From positions 1-56,595 of the forward strand of contig JAUWBI010000010.1 in the NCBI GenBank assembly GCA_030601745.1: a DNA stretch of 56,595 nucleotides, written 5' to 3'. Below are positions 3,787 to 51,390 of this stretch, one piece after another; position 1 is the stretch's first letter; each line of letters starts with the position of its first letter. Made by a program: the position numbers and the translations under genes. Source of the stretch: Phycisphaerae bacterium (GTDB lineage: Bacteria; Planctomycetota; Phycisphaerae; Sedimentisphaerales; Anaerobacaceae). The notes below the pieces were generated by a model. The model saw only the letters and a program-made list of their open reading frames with translations, searched no databases and was not told the origin of the DNA.

Positions 3787-4835
3787 GCGAAGACGGCATT
3801 TTGTTGTCGATACAGGGGCTGAGTGTCAGCTTTTTTACGGATGAGGGCGTTGTAAAGGCGGTGCAGGATGTTGGCTTTTCGATAAAGAAAGGCCGAACGT
3901 TTGCGCTTGTCGGGGAGAGTGGGTGCGGTAAGAGTGTAACGGCACTTTCGATTATGCGGTTGGTTCCGGAGCCGCCGGGCAAAATCGTTGGGGGTGAAAT
4001 TGTTTTTGAGGGTCGAAATCTGCTGGCGTTGAGCGAGAAAGAGATACGGCGGGTTCGCGGAAATGAAGTTGCTATGATTTTTCAGGAGCCGATGACCAGT
4101 CTCAATCCGGTCTATACGGTGGGTGACCAGATTGTTGAGGCCATAAGGCTGCATCAGAAAAAAAGCACAAGCGAGGCGTGGGCGGATGCGGTCGAGATGC
4201 TGCGAAGGGTGGGCATTGCTGATTCGCAGCAGCGAGTGCGCGAATATCCGCATCAGATGTCCGGTGGGATGCAGCAGCGGGTTATGATAGCTATGGCGGT
4301 AAGCTGTGAGCCGGTACTATTGATTGCTGATGAGCCGACAACTGCTCTGGATGTAACGATTCAGGCACAGATACTGGATTTGTTAGACGAGTTGCAGAGG
4401 CAAAACGGGATGAGTATTTTGCTGATAACCCACGATTTGGGCGTTGTGGCTGAACGTGCTGAGGATGTTGCGGTGATGTATGCATCGCGAATAGTGGAAG
4501 TGGCCCAGCACCAATTTTCAGATAATATGGAGACCTCAAAAATTGGTGCTGGGCGGCTTTTTGCGGAGCCGCTTCATCCTTATACGCAGGGGCTGCTAAA
4601 ATCTTTACCGCGATTGGGTTTTTCAGGTAAGCGATTGCGGACAATTCCAGGGACAGTTCCTGAGCCGTTGCATTTTCCATCGGGGTGTAAGTTTCATCCT
4701 CGCTGTCCGATAGGTTGCGGAGACAGGCGGTGTCGGACGGTTGAGCCGAAGCTGAGAGAGGTTGAAGCCGGGCGATGCGTTGCCTGCTGGCTTGCACCAG
4801 GTTACGAAACCACCGAAGAATCTAAGGAATATTAA
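3783..4835 (+). CDS. ABC transporter ATP-binding protein, DppD/OppD type, with in-frame palindromic insertion
   Basis: Cytoplasmic ATPase powering the importer, 350 residues. Walker A is GESGCGKS near residue 43, the Q-loop is MIFQEPMTSLNP, the signature is SGGMQQR near residue 160, Walker B is LLIADEPTTALD, and the H-loop is ITHDLG. The C-terminal oligopeptide-transporter domain carries HPYTQGLL and the cysteine cluster CKFHPRCPIGC. The start ATG overlaps the stop of the preceding permease. Oddity: between the conserved VMYASRIVE and AEPLHPYT, where relatives have a short linker, the gene holds a perfect 16-bp inverted repeat (4503-4554) that encodes about 17 extra residues (VAQHQFSDNMETSKIGAG) without shifting the frame. 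All catalytic motifs lie outside the insertion, so activity is probably retained. Confidence 0.95.
   Translation: MSEDGILLSIQGLSVSFFTDEGVVKAVQDVGFSIKKGRTFALVGESGCGKSVTALSIMRLVPEPPGKIVGGEIVFEGRNLLALSEKEIRRVRGNEVAMIFQEPMTSLNPVYTVGDQIVEAIRLHQKKSTSEAWADAVEMLRRVGIADSQQRVREYPHQMSGGMQQRVMIAMAVSCEPVLLIADEPTTALDVTIQAQILDLLDELQRQNGMSILLITHDLGVVAERAEDVAVMYASRIVEVAQHQFSDNMETSKIGAGRLFAEPLHPYTQGLLKSLPRLGFSGKRLRTIPGTVPEPLHFPSGCKFHPRCPIGCGDRRCRTVEPKLREVEAGRCVACWLAPGYETTEESKEY
4503..4554. repeat. Palindromic element family A, copy 1, inside the OppD-type gene
   Basis: Left arm GCCCAGCACCAATTTT (4503-4518) and right arm AAAATTGGTGCTGGGC (4539-4554) are perfect reverse complements, separated by 20 bases. The left arm plus first loop bases match the second copy at 21846-21909 (CCAGCACYAATTTTCAG). 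The loop length is also 20 in both copies, while loop sequences differ. Confidence 0.88.
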
Positions 4836-4842
4836 TCAAAAG

Positions 4843-5889
4843 ATGGTGAGCGCAGACAATTATCTACTTGAGGTTGAGAATTTAAAGACCTATTTTCCGA
4901 TAAGGAAAGGTCTGCTTCGCCGGACTGTTGGTTACGTCAGGGCGGTTGACGGGATAAGTTTCGGTATCGAAAAGGGTCAGACGCTGGGTCTGGTCGGTGA
5001 GAGCGGCTGTGGGAAGACGACTGTTGCCAGGAGTATAGTTCGGCTGGTGCCGGCAACGGCAGGGCAGGTAGTTTTTGAACGGACGAATGTTTTGTCGGCT
5101 GACAGGGTCAAATTGCGTCAGCTTCGGCGGCAGATTAGTCTTATTTTTCAGGACCCGTACGGCTCGTTAAATCCGAGAATGACCGTTGGCAATGCCATTG
5201 GTGAGCCGTTGCTCGTCGCGGCGAAGGCTCGTCGTGCTGCGCAGACGCAGCAGGCTTTCGCAAGAAAGCAGGGGGGTGAGCCCAGCCCCTCCGAGGGGCG
5301 GGGTGAGCTGATTGAACGAGTTGCGGTATTGCTTTCAAAGGTGGGGCTGTCGCGTGACCATATAAACCGCTATCCACACGAGTTTTCTGGCGGGCAGCGG
5401 CAGCGAATCGGGGTAGCCAGGGCCTTGGCGCTGGGGCCGAAATTGGTTATTTGTGATGAGCCGGTCAGTGCTCTTGACGTTTCGATTCAATCGCAGATTT
5501 TGAATTTGCTGAAGGATTTGCAGGAGGAATTTGGGCTGACGTATTTGTTTATCGCCCATGATTTGGCTGTGGTGGAGTTTTTCTGCGATATTGTGGCGGT
5601 TATGTATATGGGCAGGATAGTGGAACAGGCCACCGCGGAAGGGCTGTATCGGAACCCTCTGCATCCATATACTCGTGCCCTTATGTCGGCAATTCCACAG
5701 GTCGAACCGTCGCTGCGTGGCAGCAGGAGGTCATCTTCCGGCGAAGTTCCGAGCGCTTTGAATCCGCCGGCTGGCTGTTCATTTGGCCCGAGATGCCCTC
5801 TGGCTGAGGGCGATTGTCTAAAACAGATGCCGGCATTGAAGGAAAGAAGCGATGATGAGGGGCATTTTGTTGCCTGTTGGAAAAGTTGA
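4843..5889 (+). CDS. ABC transporter ATP-binding protein, DppF/OppF type, with in-frame repeat insertion
   Basis: Second ATPase of the peptide-type importer, 348 residues from the ATG at 4843, seven bases after the preceding stop. A TTG at 4762 is in frame, but it lies within the preceding gene and gives an unrelated N-terminus, so ATG 4843 (MVSADNYLLEVENLKTYF) is preferred; AAGGA lies 14 bases upstream. Walker A GESGCGKTT, Q-loop LIFQDPYGSLNP, signature SGGQRQR, Walker B LVICDEPVSALD and the C-terminal HPYTRALMSAIP with CSFGPRCPLAEGDC are all present. Between the conserved IGEPLL and IERVAVLLSKVGL, where relatives have about 10-15 residues, this protein has about 40, including AFARKQGGEPSPSEGRGE, encoded by palindromic repeats at 5254-5304. 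The insertion sits in the helical subdomain between Q-loop and signature. Confidence 0.94.
   Translation: MVSADNYLLEVENLKTYFPIRKGLLRRTVGYVRAVDGISFGIEKGQTLGLVGESGCGKTTVARSIVRLVPATAGQVVFERTNVLSADRVKLRQLRRQISLIFQDPYGSLNPRMTVGNAIGEPLLVAAKARRAAQTQQAFARKQGGEPSPSEGRGELIERVAVLLSKVGLSRDHINRYPHEFSGGQRQRIGVARALALGPKLVICDEPVSALDVSIQSQILNLLKDLQEEFGLTYLFIAHDLAVVEFFCDIVAVMYMGRIVEQATAEGLYRNPLHPYTRALMSAIPQVEPSLRGSRRSSSGEVPSALNPPAGCSFGPRCPLAEGDCLKQMPALKERSDDEGHFVACWKS
5254..5304. repeat. Composite palindromic repeat (families D and C) inside the OppF-type gene
   Basis: GCTTTC-GCAA-GAAAGC (5254-5269) followed by AGGGGGG matches one side of family D (11558-11593). Immediately after it, 5281-5304 holds family C in the orientation CCCAGCCCCTC-C-GAGGGGCGGGG, flanked by GTGAG on both sides. 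The reading frame stays open across both. Confidence 0.8.
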
Positions 5890-50376: not shown

Positions 50377-50529
50377 ATTCAAAAGCCTCCAAGTTTCATT
50401 CTACCGATAAACTCGCTTAATAAGTATAACACACAAATCAGATATTTCTCTTTATTTTTGGGCTGGAAAAACGTATGATGATAACATTGTGTTTACAACT
50501 TTGTGCATAAAAATAATTCCTCTGCCATT

Positions 50530-51390
50530 ATGGACAAACAAAAAGCATTTACCCCGTTAGAAATTAAGATTCCTGATCGGGAAAACGAAGGATTTCTAAC
50601 GGGGTTTACATTAATAGAGCTTTTGGTCGTAATTGCTATTGTCGCGCTGCTCATGGCGATATTAATGCCGGCGCTGCAGCGCGTCAAGAAGCAAGCCAGG
50701 GCGGTGGCGTGCAAGGCCAATCTGCATGAATGGGCCCTCGTGTTCGCAATGTACACCGATGACAATGACGGGTTATTCATGGCTGGGTATGGTGTCGGGA
50801 TTAACGGCACATGGGTCGGTGCCTTGCGGCCTTACTATCAGGAACCCAAAATCCGTGTCTGTCCAACGGCTACAAAGCCTATGTCAAAAGGAGCTCGAGG
50901 TACGTTCGCGGCGTGGGGCGTCTTTGGAGCTGGATTCGCATCTGACCATCCAGGGTGGTCCGGGCCGAAGGAGGAAGGCGACTACGGTAGCTATGGCATG
51001 AATGAGCTGGCGTACAACACACCCCCGGGTGCAGGCAGATCAGAAGATCGTTGGCGAACCGTCAACATCAAAGGGGCCGCCGAGATTCCCTTGTTATTCG
51101 ACTGCATATGGTACGATGTGTATCCGGGTTATACAGACCATCCTCCGGAGTACCCAGGTGATGTAGTAAAAACCGGAGGTGCAGGTGAGATGAAGCGGGT
51201 TTGCGTCAACCGACACAACGGATTCATAAACGCCCTTTTCATGGACTGGACTATCAAAGAGGTCGGGCTCAAAGAGTTGTGGACCTTGAATTGGCATCGG
51301 GGCTACGATACAAGCGGTCCCTGGACGAAGGCCGGCCTTGTCCAACCGTCCGACTGGCCGGAATGGATGAGAAGGTTCAAGGACTACTGA
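50530..51390 (+). CDS. Prepilin-type pseudopilin with a palindromic element inside the leader motif
   Basis: Type II secretion/type IV pilin-like protein; 286 residues from ATG 50530 (a GTG at 50503 is also in frame; neither has a clear ribosome site). The mature N-terminus FTLIELLVVIAIVALLMAILMPALQRVKKQARAVACKANL is the classic pseudopilin helix, followed by a planctomycete-type globular domain (GDYGSYGMNELAYNTPPG, NRHNGFINALFMDWTIKEVGLKELW). The leader should read MDKQKAFTLIELL; instead 19 residues (from PLEIKIPD to FLTGFT) are inserted between KAFT and LIELL, encoded by a 53-base palindrome plus a repeated TTTA. The inserted end supplies T-G-F-T-L-I-E-L-L, so the prepilin peptidase site G/F is still available and Glu at position +5 is kept. 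It lies 16 bases upstream of the GH51 gene. Confidence 0.88.
   Translation: MDKQKAFTPLEIKIPDRENEGFLTGFTLIELLVVIAIVALLMAILMPALQRVKKQARAVACKANLHEWALVFAMYTDDNDGLFMAGYGVGINGTWVGALRPYYQEPKIRVCPTATKPMSKGARGTFAAWGVFGAGFASDHPGWSGPKEEGDYGSYGMNELAYNTPPGAGRSEDRWRTVNIKGAAEIPLLFDCIWYDVYPGYTDHPPEYPGDVVKTGGAGEMKRVCVNRHNGFINALFMDWTIKEVGLKELWTLNWHRGYDTSGPWTKAGLVQPSDWPEWMRRFKDY
50552..50604. repeat. Palindromic element family B, copy 2, in the prepilin leader
   Basis: Arms CCCCGTTAGAAAT (50552-50564) and ATTTCTAACGGGG (50592-50604) are perfect complements. TTTA occurs directly before (50548-50551) and after (50605-50608) the element, as a 4-base target duplication would. The total insert is 57 bases, 19 codons. 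Arms match the intergenic copy at 6344-6405. Confidence 0.92.

What the first reader, a model, noticed from the sequence alone, without database searches (positions are those of the whole stretch)
4503..50604. A dense, multi-family set of short palindromic elements inserted in frame into protein-coding genes
Seen directly: about 29 inverted-repeat elements of 18-95 bases, in roughly a dozen sequence families, several with two to seven copies. About 24 lie within genes (two ABC ATPases, esterase-lyase, SUMF1-esterase, both unknown paralogues, TolB lipoprotein, aminotransferase, sialidase, prepilin), and every one leaves the frame open. The inserted residues interrupt otherwise conserved segments but miss catalytic motifs. 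Known parallel: Rickettsia palindromic elements, which also add peptides in frame, but those are few families in AT-rich genomes; here the families are mostly G+C-rich. Inference: a system of mobile or propagating hairpins that tolerates coding sites, possibly spread by REP-associated tyrosine transposase-like or recombination activity elsewhere in the genome. No candidate transposase is visible here.
Basis: partly seen in the sequence, partly recalled or inferred. Interest (0 to 1): 0.88.

Follow-up and report, generated by a model that had tools for sequence, protein, structure and literature searches.

The report
Frame-neutral hairpin insertions in bacterial genes
In an uncultured planctomycete, two families of 23-base palindromes have inserted into genes in steps of exactly 24 or 27 bases, which is predicted to add eight or nine amino acids without breaking the reading frame; an unidentified enzyme likely moves them, so short mobile DNA may be a steady source of new protein segments.

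Summary
The window (G000:C69, a planctomycete MAG) carries several families of short palindromes. Ten inserts in five of its genes are missing, or shorter, in aligned homologues; an eleventh is likely. Two families were measured exactly. Family A is a 23-bp palindrome that adds 24 bp, with five clean empty sites; all six of its reading frames are used in predicted genes. Family B is a 23-bp palindrome flanked by a 4-bp direct repeat (consensus YKMR) and adds 27 bp: of 65 copies with a flanking repeat of 5 bp or more, 64 are spaced 27, and three in-gene copies have exact empty sites in same-genus genomes. Both steps are multiples of three, also between genes. B variants of 28 and 29 bp were seen only between genes; one doubtful in-gene copy reads 31.

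A and B are thus mobile, target-specific micro-elements that are frame-neutral. They resemble Rickettsia palindromic elements and intragenic REPs, but lack GTAG or CGTC tags, and B duplicates its target. The multiple-of-three rule is shown for A and B only, not for A2. No protein-level evidence exists.

The parts
5277..5307 (.). Family B in OppF: TGAG repeat, 23-bp palindrome 5281-5303, TGAG repeat; 27-bp step
   Evidence: orthologues lack it
5254..5275 (.). Family D hairpin half beside the B copy in OppF; the whole stretch is 66 bp longer than in L140
4503..4553 (.). Family J/P hairpin in OppD; 39-bp net difference from L140
   Evidence: PDB homologue lacks it
11687..11717 (.). Family B between genes, 27-bp step with TGAA repeats
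15340..15370 (.). Family B in SUMF1-esterase, 27-bp step, 9 residues absent from 6 of 6 esterase homologues aligned
15396..15419 (.). B-like palindrome with longer loop in SUMF1-esterase, about 10 residues absent from 6 of 6 homologues aligned
44193..44223 (.). Family B near the N-terminus of DegT aminotransferase (TTGG / TTAG repeats, one mismatch)
9337..9359 (.). Family B (diverged) in the esterase-lyase gene; not compared with homologues
18661..18696 (.). Family B variant with long loop between genes, 30-bp step with GTTAACC repeats
18135..18156 (-). Family A in first paralogue, peptide RFPQGGVP, 7-8 residues absent from 31 of 31 aligned relatives (three have another insert beside the site)
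17772..17797 (+). Family A in first paralogue, peptide RDPALRKP, 8 residues absent from 31 of 31 aligned relatives
20726..20751 (+). Family A at the C-terminus of the TolB-like lipoprotein, peptide DPALREPK-stop
45503..45525 (+). Family A near the C-terminus of DegT; L136 (another MAG) has a copy in the same peptide context
50229..50254 (+). Family A inside a CCCCTGC/GCAGGGG palindrome, N-terminal part of the sialidase ORF
15621..15637 (+). Partial family A in SUMF1-esterase
21593..21632 (+). Family A2 (A-like ends, longer middle) in the N-terminal region of the TolB-like gene
15851..15917 (+). Family G in the SUMF1 domain; about 20 residues absent from 12 of 12 aligned relatives
20246..20312 (-). 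Family G in second paralogue, absent from 22 of 22 aligned relatives
19807..19871 (+). Family H in second paralogue, segment not found in 22 aligned relatives; 8 copies in fetched loci
19418..19470 (+). C2, GTAG-tagged double hairpin in second paralogue; some orthologues carry a shorter version
49575..49602 (+). C, GTAAGGGCGGTT hairpin in the sialidase ORF
11560..11593 (+). Family D hairpin between genes
21846..21909 (+). Family P hairpin between genes, relative of J

Best explanation
Families A and B are non-autonomous mobile palindromes of 23 bp whose insertions measure exactly 24 and 27 bp, so each is predicted to leave any gene in frame, and they are likely moved in trans by an unidentified transposase or integrase. 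Shown: B lies between two copies of a 4-bp target sequence (consensus G-YKMR-C), and at three sites relatives have one copy and no palindrome. Inferred: the enzyme makes cuts staggered by 4 nt, joins the palindrome, and the gaps are filled. Shown: A sits at TTT^C with at most a 1-bp duplication, in either orientation, often inside other palindromes. Shown: both are stop-free in all six frames and their insertion lengths are multiples of three even between genes. Inferred: because about 87% of the sampled genome is predicted coding, palindromes whose total insertion is a multiple of three spread best, so the size is kept by selection among elements, and the added octa- and nonapeptides are by-products tolerated in loops and termini.
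For: B: 94 copies; 83 have a flanking direct repeat of 4 bp or more and 75 of those are spaced 27; at 5 bp or more 64 of 65 (flanks swapped between copies: 7.4 at 27, 16.3 in all). Without any selection 71 of 94 copies have the same tetramer at +27. In the 75 copies spaced 27 the positions -8 to -5 agree in 96-100%, their neighbours in 63-69%, then background, and 55 of 75 tetramers fit YKMR, 1 in 16 if bases were equal. Empty sites at 88-92% identity, each exactly 27 bp, ORFs intact on both sides: L163:1559 (empty in G001 and G002), L163:2880 (shared with G001, empty in G002), L170:3347 (empty in G002); two are in one oxidoreductase-like gene, one in a GspF-like gene (gene names are my reading of the proteins). 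Length by place, 92 copies: in gene with coding on both sides 27 x19, 30 x1, no repeat 12; between genes 27 x15, 28 x1, 29 x2, 30 x1, no repeat 10. A: five clean 24-bp filled/empty pairs, one with the window's own OppF as the empty site; 76 of 76 exact-arm copies have a 3-nt loop; 59 of 104 copies lie in predicted genes and use all six frames. Same-genus genomes share the families.
Against: No enzyme was found; Cas1 and rve gave no match in G000, G001, G002 or G021, all incomplete. A and B differ in target and duplication, so one mechanism may not cover both. Other filled/empty comparisons at A sites gave 21 (twice) and composite lengths such as 63, 75, 83 and 108. A2 units measure 36, 38 and 39 bp in 9 copies, in genes too, so the multiple-of-three rule does not extend to it. 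The excess of odd lengths between genes is weak (3 of 19 against 1 of 44, Fisher p = 0.078). Twelve of 32 B copies in genes with coding on both sides show no 5-bp repeat. The T-rich target of A is weaker in the 51 non-nested copies. Being stop-free in six frames is expected in 50-85% of composition shuffles for A and B. No protein data.
Confidence: 0.72

Rival explanations
1. REP/RAYT system: the hairpins are REPs moved as single strands by the Y1 (HuH) transposases of this lineage.
For: Y1_Tnp genes occur in 22 of 26 genomes searched, two matches in G000. Several have hairpins tagged TTTAG or CTAAA beside them. A shows at most a 1-bp duplication and a T-rich target, and 6 of 104 A copies sit inside a hairpin of that tagged type. 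C and C2 carry a GTAG-like tag.
Against: No A copy in 31 of 31 fetched Y1_Tnp loci and one B-like core only. B makes a 4-bp duplication. G021 has B and no Y1_Tnp match, at 74% completeness. A occurs in both orientations relative to TTT^C. No transposase lies between the three close A pairs inspected.
Confidence: 0.15
2. Replication error: the palindromes arise by slippage or template switching at quasi-palindromes and are not mobile.
For: Several families are nested and variable, and tandem duplications also occur among the indels.
Against: The same 23-mers recur at unrelated sites across genera, with exact lengths, a degenerate 4-bp target and single-copy targets in relatives. Slippage gives no fixed size and needs no donor.
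Confidence: 0.04
3. The hairpins are skipped at translation or removed from RNA (like the byp elements of yeast mitochondria, recalled), so the proteins are unchanged.
For: Each copy can fold as a hairpin, and inserts lie in genes for conserved enzymes.
Against: Skipping would not need multiples of three, yet in genes with coding on both sides all 20 measured B copies are 27 or 30 bp. A uses all six frames, all open.
Confidence: 0.06
4. The inserted peptides are functional and selected for their sequence.
For: Some insertions look old, for example A in the same DegT context in window and L136.
Against: Six different octapeptides from one element sit in unrelated predicted proteins, and relatives lack them.
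Confidence: 0.05

Closest known systems
Rickettsia palindromic elements (RPE)
   Same: Palindromic repeats inserted in frame in many unrelated genes, several families, inserts in solvent-exposed areas of models (PMC3767692 and PMC10969869, passages read)
   Different: RPEs are about 100-150 bp, and rickettsial orthologues carry an insert at the same place (PMC3767692, passages). Here the units are 23 bp, empty sites exist within the genus, one element is used in all six frames, and B has a target duplication
GTAG- and CGTC-tagged REPs, including intragenic REPs of Opitutus terrae, R. conorii and Thauera
   Same: Short palindromes, some inside genes, reported also from Planctomycetes (PMC3733652: passages and section 15 read); C and C2 here carry a GTAG-like tag
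   Different: A and B carry no such tag. In that paper most REPs lie between genes; here 49 of 68 A and B copies in the G000 sample lie in predicted genes. No target duplication or exact insertion length is given in the parts I read
REPINs and RAYT-mobilised REPs
   Same: Non-autonomous hairpins spread in genomes that hold Y1 transposase genes
   Different: The Y1_Tnp loci here hold other hairpins; B duplicates its target
Prokaryotic MITEs
   Same: Non-autonomous, terminal inverted repeats, target duplication
   Different: 23 bp is far shorter than usual MITEs (recalled) and no parent transposon was found

Membership tests
RPE | Palindromic insert in frame within protein genes | tested here: met
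RPE | Unit of about 100-150 bp | tested here: not met
   A 23+1, B 23+4 bp
RPE | Found in Rickettsia and Wolbachia | tested here: not met
   exact family A only in planctomycete records, 53 stretches of 84,980 species genomes scanned; B was not scanned outside the phylum
GTAG/CGTC REP | Hairpin with GTAG or CGTC at one end | tested here: not met
   A and B flanks: TTT..TC and YKMR; C and C2 do show GTAG-like ends
GTAG/CGTC REP | Mostly between genes | tested here: not met
   A 20 of 29 and B 29 of 39 fully in predicted CDS in 640 kb, coding density 0.867, own gene caller
RAYT-REP | Same hairpins flank a Y1 transposase gene | tested here: not met
   no A in 31 of 31 fetched Y1_Tnp loci, one B-like core without B's outer arms; one search listed more matches than were fetched
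RAYT-REP | No target duplication (recalled) | tested here: not met
   B 4-bp duplication
MITE | Target site duplication | tested here: met
   B:
MITE | Terminal inverted repeats shared with an autonomous transposon | not tested
Cas1 or retroviral-type integrase product | Integrase gene in carriers | tested here: not met
   no match in 4 of 4 B-rich genomes, all incomplete

The most novel reading that the evidence does not exclude
A class of frame-neutral micro-transposons: 23-bp palindromes whose length plus target duplication has been selected to equal a multiple of three and which are open in all six frames, so that they colonise genes as readily as spacers and continually inject 8-9 residue segments into a lineage's proteome, through a new staggered-cut integration mechanism acting on G^YKMRC.
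Probability: 0.45. Interest if true: 0.86.

Novelty: new variant of a known kind. Interest (0 to 1): 0.76.

Why it matters
Mobile DNA in genes is normally disruptive. Here two element families have insertion sizes that spare the frame, with single-event empty sites among close relatives. This makes testable how selection shapes the size of a selfish element, how proteins acquire short new segments, and which enzyme can integrate a 23-bp palindrome. It also warns annotators that orthologues in this group differ by repeat-derived peptides, and that some sites (for example OppF after EPLKV) carry different inserts in different homologues.

Tried and rejected
RAYT as mover of A and B: rejected for B, open for A. 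A transposase between close A pairs: ordinary genes, or no ORF of 100 aa or more, in three pairs. Cas1 and rve integrases: no match in B-rich genomes. Viral spread: 0 exact A matches in viral contigs. RNA families: only a tRNA in the window at gathering threshold. Structure of OppF to place the insert: model too poor (mean pLDDT 58.9), not used. Generalising the multiple-of-three rule to A2: not supported. A de novo hairpin-plus-repeat scan of 1669 hairpins found a strong peak only at 27 (37 against 1.2) and a smaller one at 30 (9 against 2.4). Palindrome p-values per indel were too weak to classify single 24-bp A inserts. Stop-avoidance in H, G and D is suggestive only: composition shuffles are a weak null and copies are related. 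Exact 16-mers missed diverged families.

Rows dropped before counts: A counts use copies with up to 4 mismatches in 23 and enough flank, or up to 3; B counts need a core with at most 1 mismatch or the pattern. The position profile and the YKMR count use the 75 copies already known to be spaced 27; one search gives the unselected count. One search printed only pairs under 97% identity. One search dropped alignments over 98.5% identity or under 200 bp. One search lists some events twice because fetched loci overlap (18 rows). Gene calls come from my own hexamer caller, not a standard program, and some short predicted genes may be spurious. The stretches were chosen largely because they hold A sites, those because they hold B sites. 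In one search the script picked the wrong ORF in several loci. The B pattern ends in T, so it misses copies with another base there.
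Full report
1. What the window is. It is G000:C69 of a 3.45-Mb, 123-contig MAG, 87% complete. Records holding exact family A copies are titled Phycisphaerae, Planctomycetes or Planctomycetota bacterium, so the source is a planctomycete. 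The genes are mostly for carbohydrate degradation and transport.

2. The repeats are real. Family A has 28 places in G000 and none for the control. It occurs in 15 of 61 genomes, G000 included, all 15 among the 37 of the same family and none among the 24 of other families of the order. A scan of 84,980 species genomes found 53 stretches with an exact copy, every one in a planctomycete record. Family B has 84+87 strand matches in G000, 20+16 and 13+12 in the two same-genus genomes, 17+15 in G021 and at most 1+1 in the others of the 61. An exact-match draw of 392 genomes over the phylum had B in G000 only; that draw held no other member of the family. Other families (C2, D, E, F, G, H, K and more) show as clusters of short cross-genome matches.

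3. They are inserts. In the second paralogue, three segments of the window protein are missing from 22 aligned relatives or, at the C2 site, replaced by shorter forms in some. In the first paralogue both A copies add seven or eight residues absent from 31 of 31 aligned relatives. In the SUMF1-esterase, G, B and a B-like copy add about 20, 9 and 10 residues that no aligned relative has (12 FGE and 6 esterase relatives). In OppF, 41 inserts of six or more residues were counted in an alignment of 120 sequences, the window's included, concentrated at a few places. Different inserts hit the linker after EPLKV, and GPRLAGTQ (family A) or a close form of it occurs in five homologues at one C-terminal site. 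L140, a relative with DNA on hand, shows that this is a clean 24-bp insertion for which the window is the empty site.

4. Family A is a 24-bp step. Five filled/empty pairs at DNA level differ by exactly 24 bp: L112 against L087 and L153, L131 against L168, L132 against L086, L135 against L079, and L140 against the window. A sixth, L086 against L148, differs by 24 with rougher edges; two pairs read 21, and other A sites differ by composite lengths. All 76 copies with exact arms have the same loop length. Flanks are TTT on the left (71-77%) and T, C on the right (72%, 63%) over 93 copies; in 51 non-nested copies the same bases lead but less strongly. The base before and the base after the 23-mer agree in 79 of 101 copies, so the step is 23 plus 1. 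43 of 104 copies lie inside another recognisable repeat. In predicted genes all six frames are used: DPALREP 17, FPQGGVP 11, GPRLAGT 10, GTPPCGN 8, GSRKAGS 8, VPARRGP 5. Of the 104, 39 are internal, 12 near N-termini, 8 near C-termini, 43 between genes or at edges, 2 near locus ends.

5. Family B is a 27-bp step with a target duplication. Reading the flanks showed variable direct repeats. Over 94 copies, 83 have a repeat of 4 bp or more and 75 of those are spaced 27; at 5 bp or more, 64 of 65. The strictly repeated part is four bases, consensus YKMR, self-complementary as a class, usually preceded by G and followed by C; 71 of all 94 copies have the identical tetramer at +27. The element is therefore CCC[CA]GCCCCTNNNAGGGGC[GT]GGG, 23 bp, with one bulged base. 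Exact empty sites exist in the same genus: two copies in one oxidoreductase-like gene (IPSS-TRPSEGLAS-ARG, empty in G001 and G002; FLGDE-ASPSEGRAE-AANRL, shared with G001 and empty in G002) and one in a GspF-like gene (SGGE-PRPSEGLGE-KAAL, empty in G002), each 27 bp, with 88-92% identity around them. Three MAGs agree on these sites, which speaks against an assembly artefact.

6. Frame neutrality. Between genes B is also 27 bp in 15 of 19 measured copies. The three lengths 28, 29 and 29 lie between genes; in genes with coding on both sides all 20 measured copies are 27 or 30, and one weakly supported gene has a copy that reads 31. The contrast alone is weak (p = 0.078), but the standard length is a multiple of three in both settings. 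Because of that, both copies of the target keep the frame of the original: in a test of all 16 YKMR targets, both orientations, 16 invented flank pairs and six frames, no new stop arose in 3072 cases. In 640 kb of G000 with predicted coding density 0.867, A lies fully in predicted genes in 20 of 29 and B in 29 of 39, so genes are only mildly avoided. In unbiased indel lists, 36 of 63 indels of 12 bp or more were multiples of three, ten of them 24 bp, and 16 of 18 of 9 bp or more in the same-genus comparison. The inference that size is kept by selection rests on two families; A2 does not show it.

7. Mechanism. Shown: recurring palindrome, defined target, fixed step, duplication for B, recent events. 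Inferred: staggered cuts and an enzyme in trans. RAYT, Cas1 and rve candidates were examined and do not fit or were not found. I commit to an unidentified transposase or integrase for B; A may use another route, perhaps on single-stranded hairpin loops.

8. What is known. RPEs (PMC3767692, PMC10969869: passages) and intragenic GTAG/CGTC REPs (PMC3733652: passages and section 15) are the same phenomenon in outline. Eight literature searches, limited to open-licence full text, listed no title or abstract on 23-bp palindromes with target duplication or on multiple-of-three insertion size; apart from the three papers named I saw listings only. C and C2 look like the GTAG kind by their ends. A and B are a new variant.

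Noticed in passing
window 1-56595: 5 of the 28 genome places of family A lie in this window, 1.6% of the assembly; this region is a local hot spot.
   Followed up: no
L010, L183, L187, L188, L191: Hairpins beside Y1_Tnp (RAYT-like) genes are tagged TTTAG or CTAAA instead of GTAG, apparently a different REP tag in this lineage.
   Followed up: partly
OppF homologues P0242-P0360, core position about 124-135: One linker of OppF carries many different inserts in different homologues, including RHKGTEAQR and SDSRLRGND-like peptides.
   Followed up: partly
window 19418-19470 and orthologues P0003, P0004, P0007, P0012, P0015: At the C2 site some orthologues carry a shorter VGAG.. form, as if half of the GTAG double hairpin, others none.
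   Followed up: no
L019, L021 about 1500-1600: Family G sits inside what looks like a family D hairpin, another nested palindrome.
   Followed up: no
L113, L142, L100: A 24-bp CCTGTCCTGAGCGGAGTCGAAGGA insert in the loop of a CCCGCGAAAGCGGG hairpin, in L100 with a further 15-bp insert inside it.
   Followed up: no
window 19807-19871 and 7 other loci: Family H (62-66 bp) is stop-free in all six frames in 3 of 8 copies, against 0-0.3% of shuffles.
   Followed up: partly
window 7187-7260: A tRNA gene, the only Rfam match in the window at gathering threshold.
   Followed up: no
window 42626-42703 and 14449-14513: TAATTGG- and ATCGAG-type short tandem arrays with many relatives in the genome sample and genus.
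   Followed up: no
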